Below, piece after piece: positions 6,977 through 42,300 of a DNA stretch of 47,786 bases. The first letter of the stretch is position 1. Every line of letters begins with the position of its first letter. The notes under the pieces were generated by a model. It worked only from the letters and a program-made list of their open reading frames with translations. It had not been told where the DNA came from and ran no database searches. The translations under genes were made by a program, and so were the position numbers. This DNA is from Pseudomonas sp. BGr12 (lineage in GTDB: Bacteria > Pseudomonadota > Gammaproteobacteria > Pseudomonadales > Pseudomonadaceae), in the NCBI RefSeq assembly GCF_030272895.1, contig NZ_JALRNF010000045.1, forward strand, positions 1-47,786, given 5' to 3'.

Positions 6977-9900
6977 ATGCACACCCTCGATCCCTGCCTT
7001 GATGACGACCTGTTGGCCCTGCTCCTGGCCGAAGACGACCTTTCCCCCGCATTCGCCGCCGACAGCACCCCAGGGCCGGTCGAGCCACTGACGGGGCCAC
7101 TACCGCTGTCGTTCGCCCAGCAGCGCTTGTGGTTCCTGCAGCAACTGGAGCCGGACGGCAGCGCCTACAACATGCCCAGGGTCCTGCGCCTGGACGGACA
7201 GATGGATGCGCAACGGCTGGAGCGGGCGCTGAACCGGGTGATCGAACGCCACGCCATCCTGCGCACACGCTTCGAACAGGGTGACCTTGAGCCGCAGCAA
7301 GTCATCGAACCCCATGCCCGCCTGGTGCTTGAGCAGGTGTCGTTGAGGCACCTGCAGGGGCAGGCACTGGACGACGCACTGCAACAGCAGATCGCCGCGC
7401 AGGCAGGCACGCCGTTCGACCTCAGTATCGCCCCGCTGATCCGTGCAGTGCTGCTTGAGACCGGCGAGCAGCAGCACTACCTGTTGTTGACCCTGCACCA
7501 TATCGTCTGCGATGCCTGGTCCAACCCGCTGCTGATCGCCGACCTGTCCCGGGCCTACGGCCTGGGCGCCGAGCAGGGCCTGCCGGTGCCGGCCCAGCAG
7601 TACGCCGACTACGCCCGCTGGCAACGCCACAGCTACCCGCAAAGCCCGCAGTTCAACGCCAGCAGCCGCTACTGGCGCGACTACCTGGGCGACGAGATCC
7701 CGCCACTGGCCCTGCCCCAGGATCATCCGCGCCAGTCGGGCCAGCGCCATATCGCCGGCTATCACCTCGACCAGCTCGACCCCGATACCTGTGCGCAGTT
7801 GCAGACGCTATGCCGCGCCCACCGGCTGCAGCCGATGGTGGTGCTGCTGGCGGCCTGGCAACTGCTGCTGGGCCGCTACAGCGGGCAAAGCGACTTCACC
7901 GTCGGCATTCCCAGCGCCACCCGCACCCGCAGTGAAACCCAGGAACTGGTCGGCCTGTTCGTCAGCAGCCAGGTCTACCGCGCCCGGCTGTCGCCCGAGA
8001 CCACCGGCCTGGAACTGCTCAACCGCCTCAAGGCCGACAGCCTGGCGGCCCTGGAGCATGCCGACTACCCCGTCGAACAGATCCTCGAATCCCTCCAGCT
8101 GCACCGCAGCAGCCACGCCAACCCGCTGTTCCAGACCCTGTTCAACTGGCGCGTGAGCAGCGCGGATGCGGTCGCCCTGAAACTTGGCGCGCTTGAGGTG
8201 AGCGTCCTTGAAGGCGGCCCACGCCAGGCCAAGTTCGACCTGTCGCTGGAGGTGGACTATGCCGCCGATGCCATCGGCGTGAGCCTGGAATACAGCACCG
8301 ACCTGTTCAGCCCCGCCACCGTCGCCACCATGGCCCGGCACTGGCAGCACCTGCTGCGGGCACTGCTGGCCGAGCCCGAGCGGCGCATCGATGAACTGCC
8401 GATGCTCAGCCCCGGCGAACAGCAGGCGATCCTGCGCGGCCTGAACCAGACCGAGGTGGCCTACCCTGGCGAGTTCCGCGTCCAGCGCCTGATCGAGCAA
8501 CAGGCCCGGCGCACGCCCGAGGCCTGCGCCCTGGTGTTCGCCGATCGGCACCTGAGCTACCGCCAGCTCGACCAGCAGGCCAACCGCCTGGCCCATGCCC
8601 TGGTCCGGCGCGGGGTCGGTCCCGAGGTGCTGGTGGGCATCGCCGCCGAACGCTCGCTGGAAATGGTCATCGGCCTGCTGGCCATCCTCAAGGCCGGTGG
8701 CGCCTATGTGCCGCTCGATCCGGAATACCCGGCCGAGCGTCTGGCCTACATGTTCGAGGACAGCGCCATCGGCCTGCTGCTGACCCAGCAGCACCTGCAA
8801 GGCAGCCTGCCGCCCTTCGCCGGCCAGACCCTGCTGCTGGACGCCGACTACAGCCAGCTGCCCGACCACGCCCCGGCGGTGGAGGTCGACGGCGAGCACC
8901 TGGCGTATGTCATCTACACCTCCGGCTCCACCGGCAAGCCCAAGGGCGCCGGCAACCGCCACCTGGCCCTGCACAACCGCCTGGCCTGGATGCAGCAGGC
9001 CTACCGGCTGAGCGCGGCCGACACCGTGCTGCAAAAGACCCCGTTCAGTTTCGACGTATCGGTCTGGGAGTTCTTCTGGCCGCTGATCCAGGGCGCACGC
9101 CTGGTGATCGCCGCCCCCGGCGAGCACCGCGAACCGGACAGACTGATCGCCAGCATCGAGCGCCACCAGGTCACCACCCTGCACTTCGTGCCGTCGATGC
9201 TGCAGGTGTTCATCCACGAGCCAGGGGTCGAGCGCTGCACCTCGTTGCGGCGCATCGTCTGCTCCGGCGAAGCGCTGCAGGCCGATGCCCAGTACCAGGT
9301 GTTCGCCAAGCTTCCGGAGGCCGGCCTGTACAACCTCTATGGCCCCACGGAAGCGGCCATCGACGTCACCCACTGGACCTGTCGCGACGAAGGCCTGGAC
9401 AGCGTGCCGATCGGCCATCCGATCGCCAACCTCTATACCCATGTCCTCGATCACAGTTTCGGCCCGGTACCCAACGGCACCCCGGGCGAGCTGCTGCTCG
9501 GCGGCTGTGGCCTGGCCCGGGGTTATCACCGCCGCCCGGCGCTCACCGCCGAGCGCTTCATTCCCGACCCGTTCAGCCCGACGCCGGGCGCGCGGCTGTA
9601 TCGCACCGGCGACCTGGCCCGCTACCGTGCCGATGGCGCCATCGACTACTGCGGACGCATCGACCATCAGGTGAAGATCCGTGGCCTGCGTATCGAGCTG
9701 GGTGAGATCGAGGCCCGGCTGCTGGAGCAACCCGGCCTGCGTGAAGCCGCCGTGCTGGCCCAACCCGGCCCGACCGGCCTGCAGCTGGTGGCCTATGTGG
9801 TCGGCGCCGTCGATACCCAGATCAGCGAACTGCAAAGTGCGCTGCGCGTGCAACTGCCGGACTACATGGTACCGGCGCATATCCTGCTGCTCGAACAGCT

Positions 9901-12900
9901 GCCGCTGAGCCCCAACGGCAAGCTCGACCGCCGCGCCCTGCCAATGCCGGAAGTCAGTCAGGGTGAGTACGTCGCCCCACGCAACCAGCGTGAAGAACAC
10001 CTGGTGCAACTCTGGCAAACGCTGCTGCGCCGCGAACCGATCGGCGTCACCGACAACTTCTTCGAGCTGGGCGGCGACTCGATCATCTCCATCCAGGTGG
10101 TCAGCCGTGCGCGCCGCCTGGGCCTGCAACTCAACCCAAGGGACCTGTTCGAACACCAGACCATCGAAAGCCTGGCCAGGGTCGTGGTGGAGGTCGACCA
10201 GGGGCCGCTGCAGGGAGCCAGCCTGCTGCAGGACCTGCGAGCATTCGCCCGCGGCCCCCAGGGGCGCGCCGAGCTGGCGTACTGGCAGGCGCTACTGCAA
10301 GGCGCGGACAACGAACTGCCGGGCGCCCCTGCGCTGTGCAGCGATCATCAGATGACGCGTGTCCAGACCCGGCTGGATCGGCACCAGACCCTATGCCTGC
10401 TGCATGAAGCAGCGGACGCCTACCGCACCCAAACCCATGAACTGCTGCTGAGCGCACTGACCCTCACCCTGTGCCGCTGGACCGAACAGGCGGATGTGCT
10501 GATCCAGTTCCAGGGGACGGGTCGCGAGACCCGCTTCGAGGCGATAGACCTGAGTCGCAGCCTGGGCAATTTCACCTGCCAGTTCCCGGTCAGGCTCACC
10601 GCGGCGCCGTCGCTGGCGGATTCGATCAAAGGCACCAAGGCGCACCTGCGCGCCGTCCCCAACCACGGCCTGGGCTTCGGCGCCCTGCGCTACCTGGGCG
10701 ATACCGACAGCCGCGAGGCGCTGGCTGCCCTGCCGGTGCCACGGGTCACATTCGACTATTTCGATCCACTCGACAGCAGCGTCGGCGAGCCGTTGTTCAT
10801 ACCGAGCGATGAAGCACCAGAGGCCGATGCGCCTCTGGGCAATGGGCTACACATCAAGGGCCAGGTGCAGGACGGTGAACTCACCCTCGAGTGGCAGTTC
10901 GACCAGGCCCTGTTCACGCCTGAGACGATCCAGGCCCTGGCCGACGCCCTGGGCGAGCAACTGCACCGCCTGATCGAGCACTGCTGCGCCCCCGACCAGG
11001 GTGCGGTCACGCCCAAGGACGTGCCGCTGGCGCAGCTGTCCCAGGCCCAGCTTGATCGATTGATCGACAGCCCGCGCCAGCTCGAAGACCTCTACCCGCT
11101 GTCGCCGATGCAGCAAGGCATGCTATTCCATGCCCAGCTCGATGGCGGCCAGGGCGATTACCTGCAACAGCTGCAACTGGACGTCGCCGGCCTCGATATC
11201 GAGCGCTTTAAGCGCGCCTGGCAGGCCACCCTGGACAGCCATGGGATCCTGCGCAGCAGCTTCCACTGGGGCGAAGGCCTGGCGGTGCCGCTGCAACGGG
11301 TGAACCGCCACCTGAGTGCCGAGTTCACCTGCCACGCCCAGGGCAGCCTCGACGCGGGGCAACTGGCCGACCAGGAGCGCGAACGCGGCTTCGACCTCGG
11401 CAAGGCGCCCTTGCTGCGCTGGTCCGCCTTGCAGCAAGGCAGCGACCACTGGCACCTGGTGTTCACCAGCCACCATATCCTGCTCGACGGCTGGAGCACC
11501 TCGCAGCTGTTCGCCCAGCTGATGCAGCGTTATCACGGCATCACGGTGCCGCCACCCAGGGCGCGCTTCAGGGACTACATCGCCTGGCTGCAAGGGCGTG
11601 ACCAGCAAGCCGACCTCAACTTCTGGCAACAGTACCTGCACGGCCAGGACGCCCCTACCCTGCTCGCCCCGCAGACCCTCAACGCAACCCCGGGGCCGGT
11701 CGAACATGGCTGCTGCGAGACGCTCCTCGACGCCACCCGCACCCGGGCGCTGGAACAGCTCGCGCGCAGCGCCAGGGTCACCGTCAACACCCTGGTCCAG
11801 GCCGCCTGGGCCCTGCTGCTGCAGCAGTACAGCGGGCAGACCAGTGTCGCCTTCGGCATCACCGTGGCCGGCCGGCCAGCCACCCTGGCCCATGCCGACG
11901 AGCAGATGGGCCTGTTCATCAATACCTTGCCGGTGATCGTCCAGCCACGTCCGGAACAAGCCCTGGGCCAGTGGTTGCAGGCCCTGCAGGCCGACAACCT
12001 GCGCCTGCGCGAGCATGAGCACAGCCCGCTGTTCGAGATCCAGCGGCTGTTCGGTGGCGTGCTGTTCGACACCTTGCTGGTGTTCGAAAACTACCCGGTC
12101 GACGAAGCCCTGCAACAGCAGACCGACGACCAGTTGCAGATCGGCGCCATCACCGCCCATGGCCAGACCCACTATCCGCTCAGTGTCGCGGTCGGCCTTG
12201 GCCAGTGCCTGGACATCAAGCTGCACCATCGCCTCGACCGCGTGAGCGTGGCGCGTGCCGAGCAGATCAGCGCGCACCTGCTCGCCTGGCTGCAGGCCCT
12301 GAGCCAGGCCAGTGCCGGGCAGGCGCTTGGCGAGTTGGCGATTGCCCACCCGCAACCAGCCCCGGCGCTGCCCACGGCACCCGCCGCGTGCATCCACGAA
12401 CTGTTCGAGCAACAGGCCCGACGCACGCCTGAGGCCATCGCCCTGGTCGATGACCAAGGGCAGTTGAGCTACGACCAGCTGCAGTGCCAGGCCGAGCAAA
12501 TCGCCCGTTACCTCATCGACCTTGGCCTCGCACCCCAGGGCCGCGTCGGCCTGGCCCTGATGCCATCGTTCAAGCGGATCGCCGCGCTGCTGGGCATCCT
12601 CAAGGCCGGTGGCTGCTATGTGCCGCTGGACCCGAGCTACCCGACGGAGCGCCTGCAGCACATTATCGACGACAGCGGCCTGACCTTGCTGGTGACCGAA
12701 TCCGCCGTGCAGGACCGACTGCCACCCTTCGCCGGTGCGGTACTGGATATCGCCGCAGTCGATAGTGCAGTCGCCGAAACCCTGCCGGCCGTCCAACGCT
12801 TCAGCTCGCCGCAGCAACTGGCCTATGTGATCTACACCTCCGGCTCCACCGGCCTGCCCAAGGGCGTGGCCGTGGCCCATCAGGCCGTGGCCCGGCATTG

Positions 12901-15010
12901 CCTCGGCGCGGCCGAGGCCTATGGCCTGGACGCCACTGATCGCTGCCTGCAGTTCGCCTCGATCAGCTTCGATGCGGCCAGCGAACAGATCCTCATGCCG
13001 CTGCTGCGCGGGGCCAGCCTGCTGGTCGGCGACACCCACCAGTGGACCAGCCAGGACCTGGCCGATGCCGTCGAACGCCACGCCGTGACCTGCCTCAACC
13101 TGCCGCCCTCGTACTTTTTCGAGACTGCCCGGGTGCTGCAGGGCCAGGGCCGCTGCCTGCAGGTCAAGACCTGCATCCTCGGCGGCGAAGGCTGGAGCCG
13201 CGAGCACTACGACAAGCAGCACGGCATCCGCTGCCAACGCCTGATCAATGCCTACGGGCCCACCGAGGCGGTGATCACGCCCCTGGCCTGGCATGTGCCC
13301 CTGGATGCCCGGGGCGAGCGGCTGGCCATCGGTACACCGCTGGGGGCACGCCAGGCCCACGTGCTGGACGCCATGCTCGGCCAGCTGCCCGCGCACCTGA
13401 GCGGCGAGCTGTACCTGGGCGGTGAACTGCAGGCCCAGGGTTACCTCAACCAGCCGGCATTGACCGCACAACGTTTCATCCCCGACCCTTTCGGCGCGCC
13501 GGGCGCCCGCCTGTACCGCACTGGCGACCTGGCCGAGCGTGGTGACGACGCGCTGCTGTACTACCACGGTCGCTGCGACCAGCAACTGAAAATCCGCGGC
13601 CTGCGCATGGAGGCCGGCGAAATCGAAGGCCGCTTGTGCGCCCTGCCCGGCATCCACCAGACCCTGGTCATGCGCCACCCGCAGGCCGACAGCCTGCTGG
13701 CCTATGTCAGCTTCAGCGACAATGCGCAGCTCAAGGCTACCGACCCAGCCGTGCTCAAGCGTCAGCTTGGCGAGCACTTGCCGGCATATATGGTGCCGAG
13801 CGATATCGTGCTGCTGGAGCAGTGGCCACTGACCCACAACGGCAAGATCGACCGTCGCCGCCTGCCGTTGCCCGAGCGCGTGCGGGGTGCCGCCGACAGC
13901 ACGCCGGCCACGGCCCTGGAGCTGCGCATGATCGCCGTCTGGGCCCAGGTGCTGGAGCTGGCGCCGGAGCAGGTCGGGGTGCAGGACAACTTCTTCGAGC
14001 TGGGGGGCCATTCGCTGAAAGTGCTGGTGGCGGTGTCGGCGATCAAGGCCGAGCTGGGTGTGGAACTGACCCTGCACGCCTTCATCCAGCAGCCATCGCT
14101 GCGAGAGCTGTGCGCCTACCTCGAAGGCCAGGGCAGCCGGCGCAGCGCGATCATCGACCTCAACCGCTCACACCAGCCACGCACCCTGTACTGCCTGCAC
14201 CCGGGCGGTGGTTCGGCGCTGTGCTACTTCCCGCTGGCGGCGGCTTTGGTCGAGCAGGTCCGGGTCAAGGGCCTGATGTTCCACGACTACGTCAACGACC
14301 CGGCCACCCCGCGTCCCGACTGGCAGCAGATGGTCGACGACTACACCCGGCAGATCCTTGCCGACCAGCCCGAGGGTGACGTGCACCTGCTGGGCTGGTC
14401 GCTGGGCGCGCCGCTGGCGATGCAGATCGCCCGCAACCTGGAAGACCAGGGGCGGACCGTGGGCTTTCTCGGCCTGCTCGACCCGACCGTCGAGCACAAG
14501 GGCTCACCCGCCGGGGGAGCGGTCAGCGAACCGGCCGATAGCGACGGCCAGCCGCTGCGGCTGCAGGCCCTGACCGGATTCTTCTCGCTGTTGTTCGTCA
14601 AGCACGCCGAGACCGCCGGACGCTACTGCGAGGCACGGGGCAACCCGCTGCTCGATGATGCGGTGGTCGAGGACTTCATCCGGTGGTCGGTGAGCGTTGC
14701 CGACATCAGCGCCGAACAGGCGCGGGCGGTGTTCCTCAACGTCAGTACCGAACGCGAAGTGGCCCTGGGCAAGTCGGTCTATGCCTACCTGGAAAAACTC
14801 TCCGAAGACCTGCATTACCCGTCGTTGCAAGTGCCTGCCCATTGCTGGTGGTCGGCACTGGACACCCCGGATTTCGAGGTGCGTACCCAGGCGTTGGCGC
14901 GTTTGAATGAACAGCGGCGGGTTGCTTATTGCCGCGGCTTCGACGTGACCCATGCGACGCTGGCGTACTCGCCGCAAGTCATCGACGACATCTGCCAGGC
15001 CCTGGCCTGA
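6977..15010 (+). CDS. Terminal pyoverdine NRPS (C-A-T-E*-C-A-T-TE), PvdD-type
   Basis: The protein has 2677 residues. Domains in order: C about 40-480 (HHIVCDAWS at 174, with Ala for the usual Gly), A about 495-990, T with Ser1035 (GGDSI), a truncated epimerase about 1074-1364, C about 1369-1790 (HHILLDGWS at 1499), A about 1802-2295, T with Ser2346 (GGHSL), and thioesterase with GWSLG (Ser2475) and a likely catalytic His at 2659. The pocket code of the first A domain reads DVWHVSLID, the well-known serine code. The second reads DAENIGAIT; Glu in the third position suggests a basic substrate, and as last residue this is probably N5-hydroxyornithine (often cyclised in pyoverdines). The first C looks LCL type (accepting an L-residue), the second DCL type (its DLYPLSPMQQGMLFH start is typical after an epimerase). 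The thioesterase marks it as the last enzyme of the line. Confidence 0.93.
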   Translation: MHTLDPCLDDDLLALLLAEDDLSPAFAADSTPGPVEPLTGPLPLSFAQQRLWFLQQLEPDGSAYNMPRVLRLDGQMDAQRLERALNRVIERHAILRTRFEQGDLEPQQVIEPHARLVLEQVSLRHLQGQALDDALQQQIAAQAGTPFDLSIAPLIRAVLLETGEQQHYLLLTLHHIVCDAWSNPLLIADLSRAYGLGAEQGLPVPAQQYADYARWQRHSYPQSPQFNASSRYWRDYLGDEIPPLALPQDHPRQSGQRHIAGYHLDQLDPDTCAQLQTLCRAHRLQPMVVLLAAWQLLLGRYSGQSDFTVGIPSATRTRSETQELVGLFVSSQVYRARLSPETTGLELLNRLKADSLAALEHADYPVEQILESLQLHRSSHANPLFQTLFNWRVSSADAVALKLGALEVSVLEGGPRQAKFDLSLEVDYAADAIGVSLEYSTDLFSPATVATMARHWQHLLRALLAEPERRIDELPMLSPGEQQAILRGLNQTEVAYPGEFRVQRLIEQQARRTPEACALVFADRHLSYRQLDQQANRLAHALVRRGVGPEVLVGIAAERSLEMVIGLLAILKAGGAYVPLDPEYPAERLAYMFEDSAIGLLLTQQHLQGSLPPFAGQTLLLDADYSQLPDHAPAVEVDGEHLAYVIYTSGSTGKPKGAGNRHLALHNRLAWMQQAYRLSAADTVLQKTPFSFDVSVWEFFWPLIQGARLVIAAPGEHREPDRLIASIERHQVTTLHFVPSMLQVFIHEPGVERCTSLRRIVCSGEALQADAQYQVFAKLPEAGLYNLYGPTEAAIDVTHWTCRDEGLDSVPIGHPIANLYTHVLDHSFGPVPNGTPGELLLGGCGLARGYHRRPALTAERFIPDPFSPTPGARLYRTGDLARYRADGAIDYCGRIDHQVKIRGLRIELGEIEARLLEQPGLREAAVLAQPGPTGLQLVAYVVGAVDTQISELQSALRVQLPDYMVPAHILLLEQLPLSPNGKLDRRALPMPEVSQGEYVAPRNQREEHLVQLWQTLLRREPIGVTDNFFELGGDSIISIQVVSRARRLGLQLNPRDLFEHQTIESLARVVVEVDQGPLQGASLLQDLRAFARGPQGRAELAYWQALLQGADNELPGAPALCSDHQMTRVQTRLDRHQTLCLLHEAADAYRTQTHELLLSALTLTLCRWTEQADVLIQFQGTGRETRFEAIDLSRSLGNFTCQFPVRLTAAPSLADSIKGTKAHLRAVPNHGLGFGALRYLGDTDSREALAALPVPRVTFDYFDPLDSSVGEPLFIPSDEAPEADAPLGNGLHIKGQVQDGELTLEWQFDQALFTPETIQALADALGEQLHRLIEHCCAPDQGAVTPKDVPLAQLSQAQLDRLIDSPRQLEDLYPLSPMQQGMLFHAQLDGGQGDYLQQLQLDVAGLDIERFKRAWQATLDSHGILRSSFHWGEGLAVPLQRVNRHLSAEFTCHAQGSLDAGQLADQERERGFDLGKAPLLRWSALQQGSDHWHLVFTSHHILLDGWSTSQLFAQLMQRYHGITVPPPRARFRDYIAWLQGRDQQADLNFWQQYLHGQDAPTLLAPQTLNATPGPVEHGCCETLLDATRTRALEQLARSARVTVNTLVQAAWALLLQQYSGQTSVAFGITVAGRPATLAHADEQMGLFINTLPVIVQPRPEQALGQWLQALQADNLRLREHEHSPLFEIQRLFGGVLFDTLLVFENYPVDEALQQQTDDQLQIGAITAHGQTHYPLSVAVGLGQCLDIKLHHRLDRVSVARAEQISAHLLAWLQALSQASAGQALGELAIAHPQPAPALPTAPAACIHELFEQQARRTPEAIALVDDQGQLSYDQLQCQAEQIARYLIDLGLAPQGRVGLALMPSFKRIAALLGILKAGGCYVPLDPSYPTERLQHIIDDSGLTLLVTESAVQDRLPPFAGAVLDIAAVDSAVAETLPAVQRFSSPQQLAYVIYTSGSTGLPKGVAVAHQAVARHCLGAAEAYGLDATDRCLQFASISFDAASEQILMPLLRGASLLVGDTHQWTSQDLADAVERHAVTCLNLPPSYFFETARVLQGQGRCLQVKTCILGGEGWSREHYDKQHGIRCQRLINAYGPTEAVITPLAWHVPLDARGERLAIGTPLGARQAHVLDAMLGQLPAHLSGELYLGGELQAQGYLNQPALTAQRFIPDPFGAPGARLYRTGDLAERGDDALLYYHGRCDQQLKIRGLRMEAGEIEGRLCALPGIHQTLVMRHPQADSLLAYVSFSDNAQLKATDPAVLKRQLGEHLPAYMVPSDIVLLEQWPLTHNGKIDRRRLPLPERVRGAADSTPATALELRMIAVWAQVLELAPEQVGVQDNFFELGGHSLKVLVAVSAIKAELGVELTLHAFIQQPSLRELCAYLEGQGSRRSAIIDLNRSHQPRTLYCLHPGGGSALCYFPLAAALVEQVRVKGLMFHDYVNDPATPRPDWQQMVDDYTRQILADQPEGDVHLLGWSLGAPLAMQIARNLEDQGRTVGFLGLLDPTVEHKGSPAGGAVSEPADSDGQPLRLQALTGFFSLLFVKHAETAGRYCEARGNPLLDDAVVEDFIRWSVSVADISAEQARAVFLNVSTEREVALGKSVYAYLEKLSEDLHYPSLQVPAHCWWSALDTPDFEVRTQALARLNEQRRVAYCRGFDVTHATLAYSPQVIDDICQALA
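10196..11065 (+). other. Truncated epimerisation domain inside the terminal NRPS
   Basis: After the serine carrier domain, the sequence resembles the start of an epimerase (VDQGPLQG, compare IDQGPVSG in the NRPS at 36325-47364). It then jumps straight to the second half (AYWQALLQGAD, AYRTQTHELLLSAL). By comparison with that intact epimerase, about 165 residues are missing, including HHxxxDG. The remaining motifs are eroded: FQGTGRE for EGHGRE, LGNFTCQFPV for VGWFTSLFPV, and TFDYFDPLD for TFNYLGQFD. PNHGLGFGALRYL is still recognisable. The reading frame is kept. The remnant cannot catalyse epimerisation by the known mechanism. Confidence 0.85.
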
Positions 15011-24600: not shown

Positions 24601-27600
24601 TCTTCACCTGCTGGTCCATGCGGCCGATGTACTCCACCGCGCCATCGGCGCAGTAGCGGGCCAGGTCGCCGGTGCGGTACAGGCGGCCGCCGCTGCCGCC
24701 GAACGGATCGGGAAGGAAGCGCGCAGCGCTGAGGTCGCCCCGGTTCAGGTAGCCCCGGGCCAGGCCGTCGCGGCCGACATACAGTTCACCGACGCAGCCG
24801 GCCGGCACCGGGTTCAGATCGGCATCCAGCACATACCAGGACAGGTCGGGGATCGGCAGGCCGATGGGGCTGGCCGCGCCGTTGTCGAGGTCGGCCCAGG
24901 ACAGCGGTCGGTAGGTCACGTGCACCGTGGTTTCGGTGATGCCGTACATGTTGATCAGCCGCGTCGGCACATCGCCGAAGCGCTCGAACCACGGGCGCAG
25001 GCCCTGCACGTCCAGTGCCTCGCCACCGAACACCACCGCACGCAGCGAGTGCTCACGCGGGTCGGCGCAGGCCATATGCATCAGTTGGCGGAACGCCGAT
25101 GGCGTCTGGTTGAGCACCGTCACCTGCTCGTCGATCAGCAGCTGATGGAAGTCTTCCGGCGAGCGGCTGACCAGATACGGCACGATCACCAGGCGGCCAC
25201 CGTGCAACAACGCGCCGAAGATCTCCCAGACCGAGAAGTCGAAGGCATAGGAGTGGAACAGGGTCCAGGTATCGGTAGCACCGAAGTTGAACCACTGCTC
25301 GGTAGCGGCAAACAGCCGTTGCACATTGTGATGGCTGAGCAAGGCACCCTTCGGCTGCCCGGTCGAGCCCGAGGTGTAGATGATGTAGGCCAGGTTGGCC
25401 GGGCTCATGTTCACCTGCGGATCGGCCTCGCTGTAGCCGTCCAGTGCCTCGTCCAGGTTCAGGGTCGGGCCGCTGAACGCCGGCAATTGCAGGTGCGCCT
25501 GGGTCAGCAGCAGGCTGATGCCGCTGTCCTCGATCATGTATTCCAGCCGCTGGGCCGGGTACATCGGGTCCAGCGGCACATAGGCGCCGCCAGCCTTGAG
25601 AATTGCCAGCAGGCCGACCACCAGTTCCAGCGAACGCTCGGCGGCCAGGCCCACGCGGCTTTCCGGACCGACGCCAGCGGCGATCAGGCGATGGGCCAGG
25701 CGGTTGGCGCGGGCGTTGAGTTCGCCGTAGCTCAGGCGCTGGCCCTCATACACCAGGGCCGTGGCTTGCGGCGTACGCGCCGCCTGCTCGGCGATCTGCT
25801 CGTGCAGGCAGGCCCGGGTATCGTAGCTGATCCGTGCCGGATTCATCGCCTCGATCAAAGCCTGACGCTGATCGCCGAGCATTTCGAGCTGGCCGACCAG
25901 TGTCCCGGCGTCGGCGCGCACCATGGCCATCAGCAGGTTGCCCAGCTGTCTGGCGAGATTCTCCAGCACGGCATCGGTAAAGCAGGCGCGGTCATAGCGC
26001 AGCTCCACCGACAAGCGATCGCTGAGCCCAACCACCAGCGTCAGCGGGTAGTGGCTCTGTTCGCGGTTGGCGACCTCACCGAAGCGCAAGCCACCGGGCG
26101 TACCAGCGGCCAGGGCCTGGGACACCGGGTAGTTCTCGAACACCATCAAGGTGTCGAACAGCGCCTCGCCGCCCTGCCCGGCCCAGCGCTGGATATCGAA
26201 CAGCGGCGAATGCTCGTGCTCGCGCAGGCTCAGGTTACGCGCCTGCAACTCGACCAGGCACTGGCGCAGCGGCGTGGTGGCACTGTGGCCGAAACGCACC
26301 GGCAGGCTGTTGATGAACAGCCCGATCTGCTCCTCGACCCCGTGCAGTTCGGTCGGTCGCCCGGCCACCGTGGCGCCGAAGACCACCTGCTCGCGGCCCA
26401 GGTAGCGCTGCAGCAGGATCGCCCAGGCGCCTTGCACCAGGGTGTTGACCGTCACCTTGAGGCCACGGGCGTAGTCGGCCAGTTGCCCGGTCTGCTCGGC
26501 GCTCAGGCGCAGGTGATGTTCGGCGTAGCCGCTGTCACCGGTGGCCTTGCCGCCCAGCGCCGCCACCAGCAGGGCCGGCTCGCCGAGGTCGGCCAGCTCG
26601 CGCTGCCAGAACTGGCGGTCCTGCTCGACATCCTGGACGGCCAGCCAGTCGATGTAGTCGCGATAGCGTCCGCCAGGGCGCGGCGGCTCGTCGCCGGCAT
26701 AGCGTTGCAGCACCTCGCCGAGCAGCCGCGCATTGCTCCAGCCATCCATGAGGATGTGGTGGTTGGTGTAGATCACATGCCAGCAATCCGCGGCACTGCG
26801 CACCAGAACCAGGCGCAGCAGGGGCGCCACGGCCAGGTCGAAACCGGCCTGCAGTTCCTGCCCGGCGATGCTGTCCAGGTACTGCGCAAGATCGGCCTGG
26901 TCACGCCCGTCGAGCAGACGTAGCGGCACCTCCACCTGCTTGCGCACCACTTGCAGCGGCAGCTCCAGCCCTTCCCAGACGAAACCGGTGCGCAGGATGT
27001 CATGACGGTCGAGCGCCGCCTGCCAGGCTTGCTGGAAGCGCTGCGGGTCGAGGCCGTGGATATCCAGGCGCACCTGGTTGATGTAGTCGCCACCGGCCTG
27101 TTCGTACAAGGTATGGAACAGCATGCCCTGCTGCATCGGCGACAGCGGGTAGACATCGTCGATCGCCCGCGCCGGCAGCGGCAGCTTGTCCAGCTGCGGC
27201 TGGGTCAGGCGGGCCAGCGGGAAGTCCGACGGCGATACGCCGCCCTGGGCCGTGTCGCAGCAGTGCGCGACCAGTGCCTGCAACTCGCCGACATAGGCGT
27301 CGGCCAGATGCTGAATGGTCGCTTCACTGAACATCTCGCGACTGAAGGTCCAGCTCAGGCTCAGCTCACCGCCGAAGACCTGGCCATTGACCGACAGCCA
27401 GTTGCCCAGCGGCGCCTCGTCGCCGACCTCCAGGCCATGGGCTTCGCTGGCCGGCATGAACGCGCCGGCCTGACCCTGGAAGCTGCTGTCGAACTGCCCC
27501 AGGTAGTTGAAGGTGATCCGTGGCTGTTGCAGAGCGCCCAGGGCGGCCTGCTGTTCGGCGCTGCCCAGGTGACGCAGCACGCCGTAGCCGATGCCTTTGT

Positions 27601-30600
27601 TCGGTACGGCGCGCAGGCGCTCCTTGACCTGCAGGATCGAGCCGCGCAGGTCGTCGCCCACGCTCAGGCGCACAGGAAACAGGCTGGTGAACCAGCCGAC
27701 GGTGCGGGTCAGGTCGATAGCGTCGAACAGGTCTTCGCGACCGTGCCCTTCCAGTTGCACCATGACCTCGTCACGCCCGGTCCAGCGCGCGATCACCCGG
27801 CCCAGGGCGGTCAGCAGCAGGTCGTTGACCTGGGTGCGGTAGGCCGCCGGGGCGTCCTGCAGCAACTGGCCAGTGAGATGGGCATCCAGGCGACTCTGCA
27901 CGCTGGCGGCATGGCGGATCTGCAGGCCGGCGTCCGGCTGCTCGCAGGGCAGCGCGGTGTCGACGTCCTGCGCCTGGGCAAGCCAGTAATCGAGCTCCGC
28001 TTGCAACGCGCCTTCGCGGGCATACTGCTGCAGGCGTTCGGCCCAGGCTTTGACCGAGCTGGTGCGCGGTGGCAGGGCTGGTGCCTTGCCGGCGCAGGCT
28101 TGTTCGTAGGCGCTTTGCAGGTCTTCCAGCAGGATCCGCCACGACACGCCATCCACCGCCAGGTGGTGGACCACCAGCAACAGGCGCTGGCCGCCGTCGG
28201 CGAGGTTCATCAGCACCGCCCGCAGCAGCGGACCGCCAGCCAGGTCGAGGCTGCGCTGGGCCAGTTCGCCTTCGGCTTCAATACCCCGGGCATCGGCGAC
28301 GCTGACCTGCCATAGCAGGTCGGTAGGTGCGGCAGCATCGCTGTAGCGACCACGCCAGCCATCGGCGGCTTCATTGAAGCGCAGGCGCAGGGCGTCGTGG
28401 TGGTTCCACAGGGCCGCCAGGGCGGTTTCCAGCGCCGGCACCTGCAGAGCGTCACGCGGCTGCAGGAGTACCGACTGGTTGAAGTGATGTCGGTTGCTGA
28501 CTACGTTTTCGAAGAACTGCTGCTGGATCGGCAGTAGCGCCAGCTCACCTTCGGCTGCGGCCTGGACGATCTGCGCGACTTCGCCGGTCTGTGCCACGGC
28601 AGCCAGGCCCTGCACAGTCTGGTGCTGGAACAGGTCCTTGGGGGTGAAGCGGATACCGGCATGGCGGGCGCGACTGACCACCTGGATGGAGACGATGGAA
28701 TCGCCGCCCAGCTCGAAGAAGTTGTCGTTGACGCCGACCTGCTCGATGCCCAGCACGTCCCGCCAGATGCTTGCCAGTTGCTGTTCGATTTCGCCAACCG
28801 GGGCCACGTAGGCCTGCTGGGCCTGCGCCGCCTCCGGGCGCGGCAGAGCCTTGCGGTCGAGCTTGCCGTTGGCGGTCAGCGGCAGCATGTCGAGGAACTG
28901 CCAGTGCGCCGGGACCATGTAGTCCGGCAGGTCGGCCTTGAGTTGCGCTTGCAGCACTTCGCGCAGACCGACCTGCGCCACCGTCGGTACCACATAGGCC
29001 AGCAGGCGGCCGTCTTCGGCCAGCACCACGGCTTCGCGAACCTCCTCCATGGCTTGCAGACGGGCCTCGATCTCGCCCAGTTCGATCCGGAAGCCGCGGA
29101 TCTTCACCTGCTGGTCCATGCGCCCGATGTACTCCACCGCGCCATCGGCGCAGTAGCGGGCCAGGTCGCCGGTGCGGTACAGGCGGCCACCGTTGCCGCC
29201 GAACGGGTCGGGGATGAAGCGTGCCCCGCTGAGGTCGCCCCGGTTCAGGTAACCCCGGGCCAGGCCGTCACGGCCGACATACAGCTCACCGACGCAACCG
29301 GTCGGCACCGGATTCAGTTCGGCGTCCAGCACATACCAGGACAGGTCGGGAATCGGCAGGCCAATAGGGCTGGCCGCGCCATTGTCCAGATCCGCCCAGG
29401 ACAGCGGCCGGTAGGTCACGTGCACCGTAGTTTCGGTGATGCCGTACATGTTGATCAGCCGCGTCGGCGCCTCGCCGAAACGTTCGAACCAGGGACGCAG
29501 TCCCTGCACATCCAGCGCTTCACCGCCGAACACAACGGCACGCAGGCTGTGTTCACGCGGGTCGGCACAGGCCACATGCATCAGTTGGCGGAATGCCGAC
29601 GGCGTCTGGTTGAGCACCGTGACCTGCTCGTCGATCAGCAGTTGATGGAAGTCTTCCGGCGAGCGACTGACCAGATACGGCACGATCACCAGACGACCAC
29701 CGTGCAGCAGCGCGCCGAAGATCTCCCACACCGAGAAGTCGAAGGCATAGGAGTGGAACAGGGTCCAGGTATCGGTAGCGCCAAAGTTGAACCACTGCTC
29801 GGTGGCGGCGAACAGGCGCTGCACGTTGTGGTGGCTGAGCAAGGCGCCTTTCGGCTGCCCGGTCGAACCGGAGGTGTAGATGATGTAGGCCAAGTTGGCC
29901 GGGCTCATGCTCACCTGCGGATCGGCGTCGCTGTAGCCGTCCAGAGCATCATCCAGACTCAGGGTCGGACCAGAGAACGACGGTAGTTGCAGATGCGGCT
30001 GGGCCAGCAGCAGGCTGATGCCGCTGTCCTGGATCATGTATTCCAGCCGCTGCGCCGGGTACATCGGGTCCAGCGGCACATAGGCACCACCGGCCTTGAG
30101 GATCGCCAGCAGGCCGACCACCAGTTCCAGCGAACGCTCGGCGGCCAGGCCCACGCGGCTTTCCGGGCCGACGCCGGCGGCGATCAGGCGATGGGCCAGG
30201 CGGTTGGCGCGGGCGTTGAGTTCGCCGTAGCTCAGGCGTTGCCCCTCATAAATCAGGGCCGTGGCCTGTGGCGTACGCGCCGCCTGTTCGGCGATCTGCT
30301 CGTGCAGGCAACGCGGGCTGGCATGGCTGACAGTGACCGGATTGAGCCTGCGCAGGCTCTGTTCGCGACGCGCACCGAGCATGTCCAGTTCGCCCAGCGG
30401 CGTATCGGCGCTGGCGTGAACCAGGCTGTGCAGCAACTGTTCGAGGTCGAGCAACAGCGTGGCGATCTGCGCCTCGCTGAACGCTTCGCGCTGGTAACGC
30501 AGGTGCAGGCGTAGCGAATCGTCGCAAGTGACGATCAGGGTCAGCGGGAAGCTGCTCTGCTCATGGCTGCGCAGGCCGGAGAAGCTGACGCTGGAACCCT

Positions 30601-33600
30601 CGCTGGCGTTCAGCGCCTCGGACACCGGGTAGTTCTCGAACACCAGGTTGGTGTCGAACAGTGGCTGGCCATTGAGGCCGGCCCAGCGCTGCAGGTCCGC
30701 CAGCGGTGTGTGCTCGTACTCGCGCAAGGCCAGGTTGAGGTTCTGCAGGCGTTCCAGCCAGGCCTGCACGCCCAGTTCGGCCGCAGGCTGGTCGATGATC
30801 GGCAAGGTGTTGATGAACAGCCCGATCTGCTGCTCGATGCCGTTGAGCTCGGTCGGTCGCCCGGCCACCGTGGCGCCGAAGGCCACGCTGGATTTGCCGG
30901 TGTAGCGCTGCAACAGCAAAAGCCAGGCGCCTTGCACCACGGTGTTGAGGGTGACGCGGGTGCGCCGGGCGAACTGCTGCAGCTGTTGGAACAATTGCTC
31001 GCTGGCCTGATGCACCCGATCACCCTGCCCCTCGCCCGCGCCTTCCGGCGCCAGCGCCTCGGCCAGTTTCACCGGCTCGTCCAGGGGGCCGAGCTGCGCC
31101 TGCCAGAAGCGGCGGGCCGCCTCACCGTCGCGGCGTTGCAGCCAGGCCAGGTAATCGCGGTAACGACCGCTGCTGCCCGGTACGGCATGGCCGTGGTAGT
31201 GCTGCAGCACCTCACCCAGCAACTGGGCGTTGCTCCAGCCGTCCATGAGGATGTGGTGATGGGTGTAGACCAGGTGATGGGTGTGCTCGCCGGTGCGCAC
31301 CAGCAACAGGCGCAACAGTGCATCGCCGCCCAGGTCCAGGCCCTGCTTCTGCGCCTGGGCCAGGGAGACCAACCCCGCTTCGTCCAGGCCCGGCGCCTCG
31401 ATCAGTTCGAAGGCTACGCTGGCCTGCTTGCGCACCACTTGCAGCGGTTGCTCCAGCCCCTCCCAGACAAAGCCGGTGCGCAGGATGTCGTGGCGGTCGA
31501 CGGCGGCCTGCCAGGCCTGCTGGAAACGCTGCGGATCGAGGCCGTGGATATCCACGCGCACCTGGTTGATGTAGTCGCCAGCGGCCTGTTCGTACAGCGA
31601 ATGGAACAGCATGCCTTGCTGCATTGGCGACAGCGGATAGAGGTCGTCGATCGCCCGCGCCGGTAGCGGCAGTCTGTCCAGCAGCAGCTGGGTCAAGCGG
31701 GCCAGCGGGAAATCCGAAGGCGACACACCGCCCTGGCTCGCGTCACAGCAGTGCGCGACCAGCGCGCGCAACTCGGCCGCATAGGCATCGGCCAACTGTT
31801 GCACCGTGTCCTGGCTGAACATCTCGCGGCTGAAGGTCCAGCTCAGGGTCAGCTCGCCGCCGTAGACCTGGCCATTGATCGACAACCAGTTGCCCAGGTG
31901 CGCCGCACTGCCGATTTCCGCGCCGCGAGCCTCGCTGGCTGGACGCAGCAGGGCTTTTTCCGCGCCGTCGAAACTGGCGTCGAACTGGCCCAGGTAGTTG
32001 AAGGTGATCCGTGGCTGCGGCAGGTCGCGCAAGGCGGCTTGCTGCTCGGCGCTGCCCAGGTGACGCAACACGCCATAGCCGATGCCCTTGTTCGGCAATG
32101 CGCGCAGTTGCTCCTTGACCTGCAGGATCGAGCCGCGCAGGTCATCGGCCACGCTCAGGCGCAGCGGGAACAGGCTGGTGAACCAGCCGACGGTGCGGGT
32201 CAGGTCGATATCGTCGAACAGGTCTTCGCGGCCGTGGCCTTCCAGTTGCAACAGGGTGTGCGGGTTGCCAGTCCATTGCCCGATGACCCGGGCCAGGGCG
32301 GTCAGCAGCAGGTCGTTGACCTGGGTACGGTAGGCCGCCGGGGCCTCCTTGAGCAACTGGCGCGTGGCCTGGGCGTCAAGGTGGGTATCGACGCTGGCGG
32401 CATGGCATTTGTCCAGGGCGCCCTGGGGGTTGCAGTGTGGCCAGGCGCCTGGCGCGACCTCAAGCTGGGCGGTCCAGTAGGCCAGTTCGTCGGCCAGTGC
32501 GCCTTCGCGGGCATACTGTTGCAAGCGTTCGGCCCAGGCTTTCACCGAGCTGGTGCGCGCCGGCAATACCGGTGATTTTCCAGCACAAGCCTGCTCGTAG
32601 GCGCTTTGCAGATCCTCCAGCAGGATCCGCCATGACACGCCATCCACCGCCAGGTGGTGGACTACCAGCAACAGGCGCTGGCCGCCGTCCGCGAGGTTCA
32701 TCAGCACCGCCCGCAGCAGCGGACCGCCGGCCAGGTCGAGGCTGCGCTGGGCCAGTTCGCCTTCGGCTTCGATGCCACGGGCATCGGTCACACTGACTTG
32801 CCACAACAGGTCGCTTGGCGCTGCAGCATCGCTGTACCGCCCCTGCCAGCCATCGGCGGTTTCATTGAAGCGCAGGCGCAGGGCGTCGTGATGGTTCCAC
32901 AAAGCAGCCAGGGCCGCTTCCAGTGCCGTCACGCTCAAGGCTTCACGTGGCTGCAACAGCACCGACTGGTTGTAGTGATGGCGGGTGCTGACTACGTTTT
33001 CGAAGAACTGCTGCTGGATCGGCAGTAGCGCCAGCTCACCTTCGGCTGCGGCCTGGACGATCTGCGCGACTTCGCCGGTCTGTGCCACGGCAGCCAGGCC
33101 CTGCACGGTCTGGTGCTGGAACAGGTCCTTGGGGGTGAAGCGGATACCAGCCTGGCGGGCGCGGCTGACCACCTGGATGGAGACGATCGAGTCGCCGCCC
33201 AGTTCGAAGAAGTTGTCGTTGACGCCGACCTGCTCGATGCCCAGCACCTCCTGCCAGATCGCCGCCAGTTGCTGCTCGATCTCGCCGACCGGGGCCACGT
33301 AGGCCTGTTGGGCCTGCGCCGCCTCCGGACGTGGCAGGGCCTTGCGGTCGAGCTTGCCGTTGGCGGTCAGCGGCAGCGTTTCAAGGAATTGCCAGTGCGC
33401 CGGGACCATGTAGTCCGGTAGGTCGGCCTTCAGTTGCGCCTGCAGGGTTTCTCGCAAGCCACCCTGCTCCGCCGTCGGCACCACATAGGCCAGCAGGCGA
33501 CCGTCCTCGGCCAGCACCACCGCCTCACGCACCTGCTCCATGGCTTGCAGGCGCGCCTCGATCTCGCCCAGCTCGATCCGGAAGCCGCGGATCTTCACCT

Positions 33601-39300: not shown

Positions 39301-42300
39301 CACGGGCACATCGCGCTGCACCAGTTGCAACGGCTGGCGCATCTCGCCTTGCCAGATGAACCCGCTGCGCAGGATCGGGTGGGCCTGCAAGGCGTCCTGC
39401 CAGGCCTGTTCGAAGCGCTCGACGTGCAGCCCCTGGATATCCACGCAGGTCTGGTTGATGTAGTCGCCCTGGGTCTGGCCGTAGCGTGCATGGAATAGCA
39501 GGCCCTGCTGCAGGGGCGAGAGTGGGTAGAGGTCTTCGATCTCCCGCGCGGCCACCGGCAGGCGGTCGAGTTCGGCCTGGCTCAGGCCGGCCAGCGGGAA
39601 GTCCGAAGGCGTGACCGCACCGGCGCGACTGTCCAGGCAGTCGCCGATCAGCGCTTGCAGCTCGGCGATATAGGCGGCGGACAGCGTCTCGATCAGCGCC
39701 GGCTCGAACATGGCGGTGCTGAAGGTCCAGTTCAGGGTCAACTGGCCGCCATAGACCTGGCCGTCGATGCTCAACCAGTTGCCCAGCGGCGCCTGTTCGT
39801 TCTGGGTCGGTCCGAAGGCATCGCTGCAGGGCACGAACAAGGCACCCTCGTCGGCCTGGAAACTGCCATCGAACTGGCCCAGGTAGTTGAAGGTGATGCG
39901 CGGCACCGGCAAGGCCGCCAGGGCCTGTTGCACAGCCGCCTCGCCCAGGTAGCGCAGCACGCCGAAACTCACGCCGCGGTGGGGAATGGCGCGCAGCTGT
40001 TCCTTGATCTGCTTGAGGCTGCCCACGCGGTCCTCGGCAACGCTCAGGCGCACCGGGAACAGGCTGGTGAACCAGCCCAGGGTGCGGCTCGGGTCGAGGT
40101 CGTCGAACAGCCCTTCGCGACCGTGGCCTTCCAGTTCGAGCAGCACCTCGGGGCGACCGGTCCAATCGGCAACCACCCGGGCCAGGGCCGTCAGCAGCAG
40201 GTCGTTGACCTGGGTGCGGTAGGCCGCCGGGGCCTGTTGCAGCAACTGGCGGGTGCGTTCGCTGTCGAGTTGGACCTTGATGCTCCGGGCATCGCGGTTC
40301 AGGCACGGCACCTGGGGATCGGCGACCGGCAGGCGGCCATCGGCCCCGGCCAGCAGCGCCTGCCAGTGCGCGGCGGCATCGCCCCACGCCGGGCTCTGCG
40401 CCTGCTCGGCCAGGCGCCGGGCCCAGCGTTGGGTCGAGGTGGTCCGGGCCGGCAGTTGCACCGGCTGGCCCGCGCACAACTGGCTGTAGACGCGTTGCAG
40501 GTCTTCGAGCAGCACCCGCCACGACACGCCATCGATCACCAGGTGGTGCACGGTCAGCAGCACCCGCTGGGAGCCGTCCGCGCCGTCGATCAGCAGGCCG
40601 CGCAGCAGCGGTCCGGCTTCCAGGTCGAGGCTGCGTTGGGCCTGCTCGCACAGGGCCTGCACCGACTCGCCGGCTGCGACACTGGCACGCCACAACAGTG
40701 TGTGCCGGGGCCTTTGCAGGTCGGCAATCTGCGCCTGCCAGCCGGACGCGCCGTGGCTGAAGCGGCTGCGCAGGCTGTCGTGGTGCTCCACCAGGGTGTG
40801 CAGGGCCTGCTCCAGCCACTTGGCCTCAAGCGGTGCCGTGGCGCTCAGGAGAATGGTCTGGTTCCAGTGATGACGCTCGGGGATGGCTTCGGCGAAGAAG
40901 CGCTGTTGCGCCGGCTGCAGCACCTGCTCGCCACTGACCGGCCCCTGGTCGATATCGACGCTCGCTTCACCGCGCCGGGCGATACGCGCCAGCGCCTGCA
41001 CGGTCTGGTGCTTGAACAGGTCGGCCGGGGAAAACTGGATGCCCAGCTGACGCGCGCGGCTGACCACCTGGATGGAGATGATCGAGTCGCCGCCCAGTTC
41101 GAAGAAGTTTTCCGTCACACCGACTTGAGGCAGGCGCAGCACCTGGGCCCAGAGCTGGGCGATCTCACGCTCCAGGTCGTTGCCCGGGGCCTGGTACGGT
41201 TGCGCCACGTCCTGCTCATCCACTGCCGGCAAGGCGTTGCGGTCGAGCTTGCCGTTGAGGGTCAGCGGCAGTTGCGCCAGGCACAGGATGCGCCGGGGCA
41301 CCATGTGTTCGGGCAGGCGCTCGCGTAGCCGTGCCTGCAACGCAGCGACGTCCAGCCCGGCACCTGCGACATAAGCCACCAGGCGCGCGCCGGACGGCCC
41401 CGGCTGGGCGAGCACCGCCGCTTCACGCACGCCGGGCAGCGCCAGCAGGGCTGCCTCGATCTCGCCCGGCTCGATACGGAAACCGCGAATCTTCACTTGC
41501 GCGTCGACGCGCCCGGCGAACAGCACCCGGCCATCGTCCAGGTAGCGCCCGGCATCGCCCGTGCGGTACAGCCGCGCCCCCGCCGCCCCGAACGGATCGG
41601 GCACGAAGCGCTCGGCCGTCAGGCCAGGTTGCTGCAAGTAGCCGCGCGCCAGCCCCTGGCCACCAATCAGCAGTTCACCCCGTACTCCTTCGGGGACCCG
41701 GTTCAATTCGTCATCGACCAGCCAGGCGCAACGCTGCCCCAGCGGCCGGCCAATGGCCGGCTTGCCGCCCTGCCCGGTGCCCGCTCGGTAGTGCTCGACC
41801 AGGGGACTGATCACCGCTTCCGTCGGGCCATAAGCATTGAACAGGCGCTCGAAACGAACCTGGCGCAGGCCCTGGATCAGTTGCTCGTCCCAGGCCTCGC
41901 CACCGAGCACGCAGGTGCGCACCGCGACCTGCCGGCCACTGGCGCCCAAGGCCTGATCGAACTGGCCGAGGTAGGCCGGTGGCAGGTCGACCAGGTCGAT
42001 ACGATGGCGTTGCAACTGGTCGGCCAGCTCGTCACTGCTCCACTGCGCCACCTCGCCCAGCAGCAGCCGGGCGCCGCTGATCAGGCTCATGAAGATCTGC
42101 TCGGCCGCAGCGTCGAAACTGGCCGAGGCGAACTGCAGCACGCCGTCGCCGGCGCCGAGCCCATACAGGCTTGCCGCCGCCTGGCAATGCATGGCCAGGG
42201 CGCCCTGGCTGACCGCCACGCCCTTGGGCAGGCCGGTGGAGCCGGAGGTGTAGATGACATAGGCAAGGCTTTGCGGCTGTACCGCCAGCGGCTTGAACAC

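What the first reader, a model, noticed from the sequence alone, without database searches (positions are those of the whole stretch)
10196..11065. Epimerase domain of the terminal NRPS has lost its catalytic half in frame
The carrier (GGDS type) and the following C domain (DCL type) both have the hallmarks of a module that makes D-Ser. The epimerase between them lacks about 165 residues, including HHxxxDG, and its remaining motifs are eroded. The combination of deletion and point erosion with an intact frame argues against a sequencing error. Either L-Ser is now incorporated through a C domain that used to demand a D-residue, or another epimerase acts on it. This is a natural example of stereochemical change in an assembly line.
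Basis: partly seen in the sequence, partly recalled or inferred. Interest (0 to 1): 0.7.

Follow-up and report, generated by a model that had tools for sequence, protein, structure and literature searches.

The report
Half-deleted epimerase in pyoverdine assembly line
In a pyoverdine (iron-scavenging) assembly line, the domain that would flip serine from its L to its D form has lost its catalytic half in frame, and a related bacterial sequence shares the loss, so serine is likely built in as the L form through a joining domain of the family that normally takes D residues.

Summary
Between a GGDS carrier and a DCL-type condensation (C) domain of the terminal pyoverdine synthetase (6977-15010 +), the epimerization (E) domain is 178-181 aa shorter than the cluster's three intact E domains. 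HHxxxDG is gone, the Glu of EGHGRE is Gln, and the frame is open. It is not an assembly error: P0124, an orthologue on another contig, has the same truncation. Relative to flanking A and C domains, the remnant diverges about 2.7 times faster than intact E domains (one pair). No stand-alone E domain was found in the genome. The downstream C domain falls with all 116 E-preceded C domains examined. Thirteen of 329 DCL-type C starts examined (a redundant, similarity-picked set) follow a truncated, dead or absent E, in at least three lineages. Best reading: the E domain is dead, L-Ser is likely incorporated, and the former DCL domain accepts it, the E C-lobe remaining as a tolerated spacer. Stereochemistry is inferred, not shown. 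Closest precedent: glycopeptide synthetases, where former DCL domains behind lost or inactive E domains act on L donors (PMC1894796). New variant of a known kind.

The parts
6977..15010 (+). terminal pyoverdine synthetase gene, C-A(Ser)-T-[E remnant]-C-A(OHOrn-like)-T-TE, 2677 aa
8435..9976 (+). adenylation domain 1, specificity letters DVWHVSLID (Ser, assignment recalled), identical in P0124
9977..10186 (+). carrier domain 1, GGDS motif at aa 1032 (E-associated type)
10187..11065 (+). truncated epimerization domain (aa 1071-1363): E N-terminus joined to the E C-terminal lobe; no HHxxxDG; TIGR01720 part kept
10193..10231 (+). surviving start of the E domain (VDQGPLQGASLLQ); deletion junction follows at about 10232-10237
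10508..10528 (+). FQGTGRE in place of the LEGHGRE motif; Glu to Gln at aa 1179
11087..12346 (+). condensation domain 2, DCL type (DLYPLSPMQQGMLFH; HHILLDG at 11471-11491), downstream of the dead E
12347..15007 (+). adenylation 2 (DAENIGAIT), carrier 2 and thioesterase of the last module
39526..41010 (-). intact epimerization domain in P0002 (yardstick)
31637..33115 (-). intact epimerization domain 1 in P0003 (yardstick)
27149..28624 (-). intact epimerization domain 2 in P0003 (yardstick)

Best explanation
The serine module of this terminal pyoverdine synthetase carries an epimerization domain whose N-terminal catalytic half is deleted in frame, so the module most likely passes on L-Ser, and the following C domain, of the type that normally takes D donors, would accept it. 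Shown: the deletion, loss of HHxxxDG, the Glu-to-Gln change in EGHGRE, the same truncation in an orthologue, faster divergence of the remnant, and DCL-type ancestry of the C domain. Inferred: serine specificity (from recalled A-domain letters), no epimerization, L-Ser in the product, and relaxed or switched donor selectivity of C2. Also inferred: the C-terminal lobe stays as a tolerated spacer between carrier and C domain. P0124 keeps 18 more residues at the junction, the last of which resemble intact E sequence (SERLQAF beside AERLQQY), which fits one shared ancestral deletion followed by a second trimming in the window lineage.
For: Deletion and motif loss. Orthologue P0124 with the same truncation: identity per domain C1 89.9, A1 96.3, T1 92.9, remnant 78.1, C2 92.7, A2 89.2, T2 91.2, TE 93.7%, so the synthetase is kept while the remnant drifts. 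E C-lobe divergence relative to flanking A and C: 4.12 for the window pair; 0.96-2.0 (median 1.53) in 36 intact pairs from 21 proteins; 2.63-3.48 in 4 pairs of other dead E domains. C2 sits on the side of the C-domain tree where 116 of 116 E-preceded C domains fall; 10 of 12 carrier-preceded and 35 of 36 N-terminal ones fall on the other, support 0.99. Both carrier-preceded exceptions (L104, L115) are E-less modules. No stand-alone E in the genome. Ser letters identical in both orthologues. Weak hint: C2 of P0001 and P0124 has Gln at position 1397, as do P0018, P0019, P0021 behind point-dead E domains and 8 of 45 non-DCL C domains, but 0 of 116 C domains behind intact E. Precedent: glycopeptide M4 and M7 C domains (PMC1894796, section 26).
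Against: No chemistry was available: Ser configuration is unknown. C2 keeps 40 of 44 DCL-diagnostic residues, so sequence gives no clear sign of a switched donor site; Rausch et al. likewise found none in glycopeptide M4/M7. Of 7 DCL-conserved positions changed in C2, three of the diagnostic ones carry a residue seen in the 45 non-DCL C domains (N1397Q 8, V1515L 31, F1722I 11), which may be chance: five other C domains behind truncated, dead or absent E (P0026, P0030, L118, L104, L115) keep Asn at 1397, and none of the eight others examined has V1515L or F1722I. The structural models are weak (mean pLDDT 51-52, 4-sequence alignments), so a folded spacer is not shown. Five loci lack E altogether, so a spacer is not generally needed.
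Confidence: 0.74

Rival explanations
1. D-Ser is still made: an epimerization domain of another module, or a free serine racemase, supplies the D form in trans, and C2 stays a strict DCL domain.
For: C2 retains 40 of 44 DCL-diagnostic residues; trans racemase supply is known for cyclosporin (PMC8949500, passage).
Against: The other E domains found are inside modules (three in the window, one in the frame taken for PvdL), which act on their own carriers (recalled). The A1 letters are those of an ordinary Ser domain (assignment recalled), and D-Ser loading would need a D-tolerant A domain. Free racemases were not searched for.
Confidence: 0.12
2. The assembly line is decaying: the synthetase or the whole cluster no longer makes a siderophore and the E deletion is one sign of it.
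For: G017, placed in the same species, gave no match to this synthetase at E <= 1e-290, to its carrier-remnant-C stretch at 1e-70 or to the junction at 1e-4; its best match to the last module (5.9e-220) is no stronger than those of other genomes.
Against: All NRPS frames of 1036-4927 aa are open; cyclic-peptide exporter, PvdO-like, ornithine hydroxylase and receptor genes are present as open frames; A and C domains are 89-96% identical to P0124 while the remnant drifts.
Confidence: 0.07
3. The remnant has a positive role of its own, for example as a docking platform between carrier and C domain (as X domains of glycopeptide synthetases recruit oxygenases), and selection keeps it for that.
For: Residues 1231-1250 are 95% and 1331-1370 90% identical between orthologues; TIGR01720 is still recognised; the E C-lobe was kept in both groups with an N-half deletion (window pair; P0026, P0030).
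Against: The remnant diverges faster than any flanking domain; five fetched loci have no E at all and a 70-72 aa stretch from GGDS to the C domain, so such a spacer is not generally needed; no partner protein is indicated.
Confidence: 0.07

Closest known systems
Glycopeptide antibiotic synthetases, C domains of modules 4 and 7 behind lost or inactive E domains (vancomycin type, A47934, complestatin); Rausch et al. 2007, PMC1894796
   Same: A C domain of DCL ancestry stands behind a former, now lost or inactive E domain and must handle an L donor; in complestatin degraded domains are still present (section 26).
   Different: There the product stereochemistry is known. Here the compound is a pyoverdine-type siderophore, the E domain is caught with its N half deleted in frame, and stereochemistry is unknown.
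LgrA module 2 (linear gramicidin) and diperamycin module 8: inactive E domains (PMC8150014, PMC10888640)
   Same: A catalytically dead E domain kept in an assembly line, in diperamycin without HHxxxDG.
   Different: The diperamycin paper notes that its E would act on a glycine, and LgrA module 2 is glycine too (recalled), so stereochemistry is not at stake; here A1 predicts serine.
PvdL E-C of pyoverdine synthesis (solved: 9lco, 9lcp, 9lcq, 9up2)
   Same: Nearest solved sequences to the remnant (234-237 bits) with the same E-then-C order.
   Different: In the PvdL chains the match lies in a longer E domain; the remnant aligns only from its residue 22 on, to the C-terminal part.
Dual C/E domains of Pseudomonas lipopeptide synthetases
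   Same: A C domain handles a residue without a separate active E domain (PMC8949500, PMC9431178 passages).
   Different: C2 groups with E-preceded C domains and starts FHAQLDGGQGDYLQ, without the HHxxxxxGD-type N-terminal motif of dual domains (motif recalled; no dual domain was knowingly put in the tree).

Membership tests
active NRPS epimerization domain | HHxxxDG motif | tested here: not met
   HH...D only at aa 174 and 1499 of P0001, not in the E region
active NRPS epimerization domain | catalytic Glu of EGHGRE (role recalled) | tested here: not met
   QGTGRE in P0001, QGPGRD in P0124; Glu conserved at 1.00 in the 103 intact reference domains, a set chosen by both motifs
active NRPS epimerization domain | both lobes of the domain | tested here: not met
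   no N-lobe profile match upstream of the C-lobe match, which covers 1-294 of 294
descendant of an NRPS epimerization domain | E-type C-terminal lobe and TIGR01720 | tested here: met
   318 bits to the E C-lobe profile; TIGR01720 110.2 bits, cut-off 74.2
DCL condensation domain | groups with C domains that follow E domains | tested here: met
   split support 0.99
DCL condensation domain | accepts D and refuses L donors | not testable with these tools
   needs a biochemical assay
former DCL that now takes L donors (glycopeptide M4/M7 kind) | preceding E inactive or lost | tested here: met
former DCL that now takes L donors (glycopeptide M4/M7 kind) | L residue at that position of the product | not testable with these tools
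   no product data
dual C/E domain | additional N-terminal HHxxxxxGD-type motif | tested here: not met
   C2 N-terminus read; motif itself recalled
pyoverdine biosynthesis cluster | PvdO, cyclic-peptide exporter, ornithine hydroxylase, TonB receptor, NRPSs | tested here: met
   the PvdO hit is 482.8 bits, just under the NCBIfam cut-off of 500

The most novel reading that the evidence does not exclude
Pyoverdine synthetases repeatedly re-set product stereochemistry by killing E domains while leaving the DCL-type C domain in place. Point inactivation, N-lobe deletion and complete loss are separate stages seen in living lineages, so DCL C domains are not a hard stereochemical gate, and the E C-lobe is a fossil spacer that marks the switch.
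Probability: 0.5. Interest if true: 0.68.

Novelty: new variant of a known kind. Interest (0 to 1): 0.52.

Why it matters
Whether a DCL condensation domain truly refuses an L donor is a central question for redesigning peptide assembly lines. A natural series (intact E, point-dead E, half-deleted E, no E, all before DCL-type C domains in one siderophore family) makes it directly testable and gives natural sequences to compare. It also warns that structure predictors that count E domains, or that detect only TIGR01720, could assign D residues wrongly.

Tried and rejected
Sequencing or assembly error: rejected, because P0124 shares the truncation with its own indels. Chance or a false alignment: rejected by profile scan. 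Stand-alone E domain: none found. Dual C/E nature of C2: not supported (and N-terminus). P0024 and P0046 first looked like truncated E domains but the GGDS found lies inside an E domain. A second junction search, with P0124 (7 of 71 candidates), added P0126, P0127, P0128 and P0129, whose E domains still carry HH...D.

Led nowhere: named relatives could not be fetched (searches returned no confirmed locus). No second genome with the junction in held genomes (32 of 398 match, the window's own included; best other hit 34 bits against 159). Searches (38 of 198 genomes match; 319 of 398; 107 of 338) listed no other row that starts before query residue 29. These lists are cut by E-value, one search also by length, and up to 9, 4 and 5 candidates per genome were scored, so this is no complete census. 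One search was swamped by multi-E proteins (120 of 1746 listed). Structure models are too weak to decide on the fold; Foldseek ranks PvdL E-C structures first, with rmsd 7-8, so it adds little.

Earlier C-domain trees had too few or mislabelled carrier-preceded C domains, probably because the E profile also removed true C domains; one search replaces them. The residue counts (8 of 94 changed, A1628I among them) are superseded (7 of 90). In one search the dead E C-lobes do not form one clade; the grouping of L118 with the P0018 group there (support 0.952) is doubtful, since its C domain lies nearest to L034, outside that group. P0016/P0017, intact at this module, served as a control pair.

Full report
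OBSERVATION. The gene at 6977-15010 (+) encodes 2677 aa with C, A, T, a shortened condensation-like domain, C, A, T and thioesterase. The first A domain has the letters DVWHVSLID, which I recall as serine; the second has DAENIGAIT, N-hydroxyornithine-like (assignments recalled). Between the GGDS carrier (aa 1032) and the C domain starting DLYPLSP (aa 1371), GGDS to YPLSP spans 341 aa. The three other E domains of the cluster have 519-522 aa. The alignment places the loss in the N-terminal half: E-type sequence VDQGPLQGASLLQ runs directly into the segment before ELAYWQ, and HHxxxDG with its surroundings is absent. NCBIfam recognises TIGR01720 in the remnant. Of 90 columns conserved in at least 95% of 103 non-redundant intact E domains, 70 are kept; the intact ones keep 74-90, median 89. 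Lost ones include the Glu and His of EGHGRE (QGTGRE), the Trp of GWFT and most of the NYLG motif. That the Glu is the second catalytic residue of E domains is recalled, not from a call.

NOT AN ERROR. A homologue search with the junction region (aa 1066-1140) gave five proteins of 129 candidates, P0001 included; only P0124 covers the junction almost fully (97%, 60% identity; the other three 72%). P0124 (2690 aa, ENA source, 31 kb contig, unnamed) has the same architecture and truncation. Domain identities are C1 89.9, A1 96.3, T1 92.9, remnant 78.1, C2 92.7, A2 89.2, T2 91.2, TE 93.7%. P0124 has 18 additional residues at the junction, the last of which (SERLQAF) resemble intact E domains (AERLQQY), and lacks five residues elsewhere. 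This fits one shared large deletion and later small ones, all in frame (inference).

RATE. I compared E C-lobe divergence with the mean divergence of the flanking A and C domains. In 36 pairs of intact modules (21 proteins) the ratio is 0.96-2.0, median 1.53. In four pairs of other dead E domains it is 2.63-3.48, and in the window pair 4.12. The remnant is therefore under relaxed constraint; that some constraint remains is inference. GC of the remnant (0.673) is like the flanks; its third-position GC (0.826) is the lowest of the eight segments, next to the carrier (0.829; others 0.850-0.912).

DOWNSTREAM C DOMAIN. In a tree of 173 non-redundant C domains, all 116 that follow a recognisable E domain fall on one side (support 0.99). 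On the other side are 10 of 12 that follow a carrier directly and 35 of 36 N-terminal ones. The N-terminal exception is in P0030, a partial record. C2 of P0001 and P0124 lies on the DCL side. The two carrier-preceded exceptions (L104, L115) are modules with no E domain but a DCL-type C. C2 keeps 40 of 44 DCL-diagnostic residues. Three of its four diagnostic changes carry residues also seen in the 45 C domains of the other side (N1397Q in 8, V1515L in 31, F1722I in 11). Gln at 1397 occurs in 0 of 116 C domains behind intact E but in five behind dead E (P0001, P0124, P0018, P0019, P0021); P0026, P0030, L118, L104 and L115 keep Asn. This is a candidate residue to test; I do not read a switch of the donor site from it.

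HOW COMMON. A profile scan of what I had fetched by then (129 proteins, 92 loci) found 361 E C-lobe hits, redundant, of which 8 hits in 4 distinct proteins lack the N lobe: P0001 (with three locus copies), P0124, P0026, P0030. In 110 non-redundant E domains, 7 are not canonical: these four and P0018, P0019, P0021, which are full length but have AHWLAVD or GHWLAVD instead of HHxxxDG. Counting from the other end, 13 of 329 DCL-start motifs with at least 400 aa upstream (redundant) lack HHxxxDG[VIAT]SW there: four truncated, four full length but dead (with L118), five without any E (L104, L109, L113, L115, L121; 70-72 aa from GGDS to YPLSP). The proteins were picked by similarity to the remnant or its module, so these are not frequencies. 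The window pair, the P0018 group and the E-less pair fall apart in the C tree, so at least three lineages are involved. In the C tree the P0018 group also contains modules with intact E domains (P0016, P0017, L072), so more than one loss there is possible. Sampled searches of held genomes showed no further truncated orthologue, within the limits told under Tried and rejected.

MECHANISM. Shown: the E domain lacks both motifs, no stand-alone E domain was found in the genome (three intact E domains in the window, one in the 4375-aa frame on contig 11 that I take for PvdL, the remnant, and C domains), and the rest of the synthetase is conserved. Inferred: L-Ser stays L; the C domain, a former DCL, accepts it; the C-terminal lobe remains as a tolerated spacer. 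AlphaFold models from four-sequence alignments are weak (mean pLDDT 51-52), so the fold of the remnant is open; the nearest solved structures are PvdL E-C proteins.

WHAT IS KNOWN. Rausch et al. 2007 (PMC1894796; passages and section 26 read) describe glycopeptide synthetases in which C domains of modules 4 and 7 cluster with DCL domains, stand behind lost or inactive E domains and act on L donors, and did not find their specificity-determining positions changed. This is the same kind. Dead E domains are also reported in LgrA (PMC8150014, figure legend passage) and diperamycin module 8, at a glycine (PMC10888640, passages); an inactive E domain was only hypothesised in Brevibacillus (PMC3940840, passage). 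PMC9431178 (passages) notes inactive epimerization domains as a problem for genome-based stereochemistry. Searches for truncated or inactive epimerization domains, with and without pyoverdine (open-access PMC only), showed me no report of a truncated E domain in a pyoverdine synthetase. For these I saw the listings, plus passages of the papers cited here and of PMC12195549, PMC8949500, PMC12971057, PMC9229766, PMC3207962, PMC10212144, PMC4535683 (its 'truncated' is a truncated product) and PMC13037486 (a truncated synthetase gene end in P. bohemica, not an E domain).

VERDICT. A real, conserved, in-frame half-deletion of an epimerization domain in a predicted serine module; ordinary in kind, since precedents exist, but a new variant in a new compound family and one stage of a recurrent series. 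The stereochemical claim is likely and untested.

Noticed in passing
18492-21602 (-) and 21602-22705 (-): P0004 begins with a condensation-like domain without HHxxxDG (94 bits to Pfam Condensation), and the preceding synthetase P0003 ends in a TauD-type dioxygenase domain (158.7 bits); with the letters DLTKVGHVG (Asp, recalled) this looks like a beta-hydroxyaspartate module with an interface-type C domain (family recalled).
   Followed up: partly
L104, L109, L113, L115, L121: Modules in which a GGDS carrier is followed after 70-72 aa by a DCL-type C domain with no E domain at all; upstream A letters DGECTGGIT-like, Orn/Lys-type by recall, so a chiral residue is expected.
   Followed up: partly
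P0018, P0019, P0021 (carrier at aa 2551-2552) and L118: Full-length E domains with the HHxxxDG motif destroyed by point changes.
   Followed up: partly
P0026 (aa 2551), P0030 (aa 1333): Two further E domains with the N-terminal half deleted, in another synthetase lineage.
   Followed up: partly
window against G017: A genome of the same species gave no strong match to this terminal synthetase, so the pyoverdine locus may vary within the species.
   Followed up: no
window:18492-47364 (-) and 6977-15010 (+): Predicted peptide from A letters: Asp, OHOrn-like (with E), Lys/Orn-like, Thr (E), Thr (E), Thr, hydroxy-Asp, Ser, OHOrn-like; letters to residues recalled.
   Followed up: partly
C2 position 1397 (11165-11167): Gln instead of Asn in C domains behind dead E domains in two lineages, never (0 of 116) behind intact E in the set examined.
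   Followed up: partly
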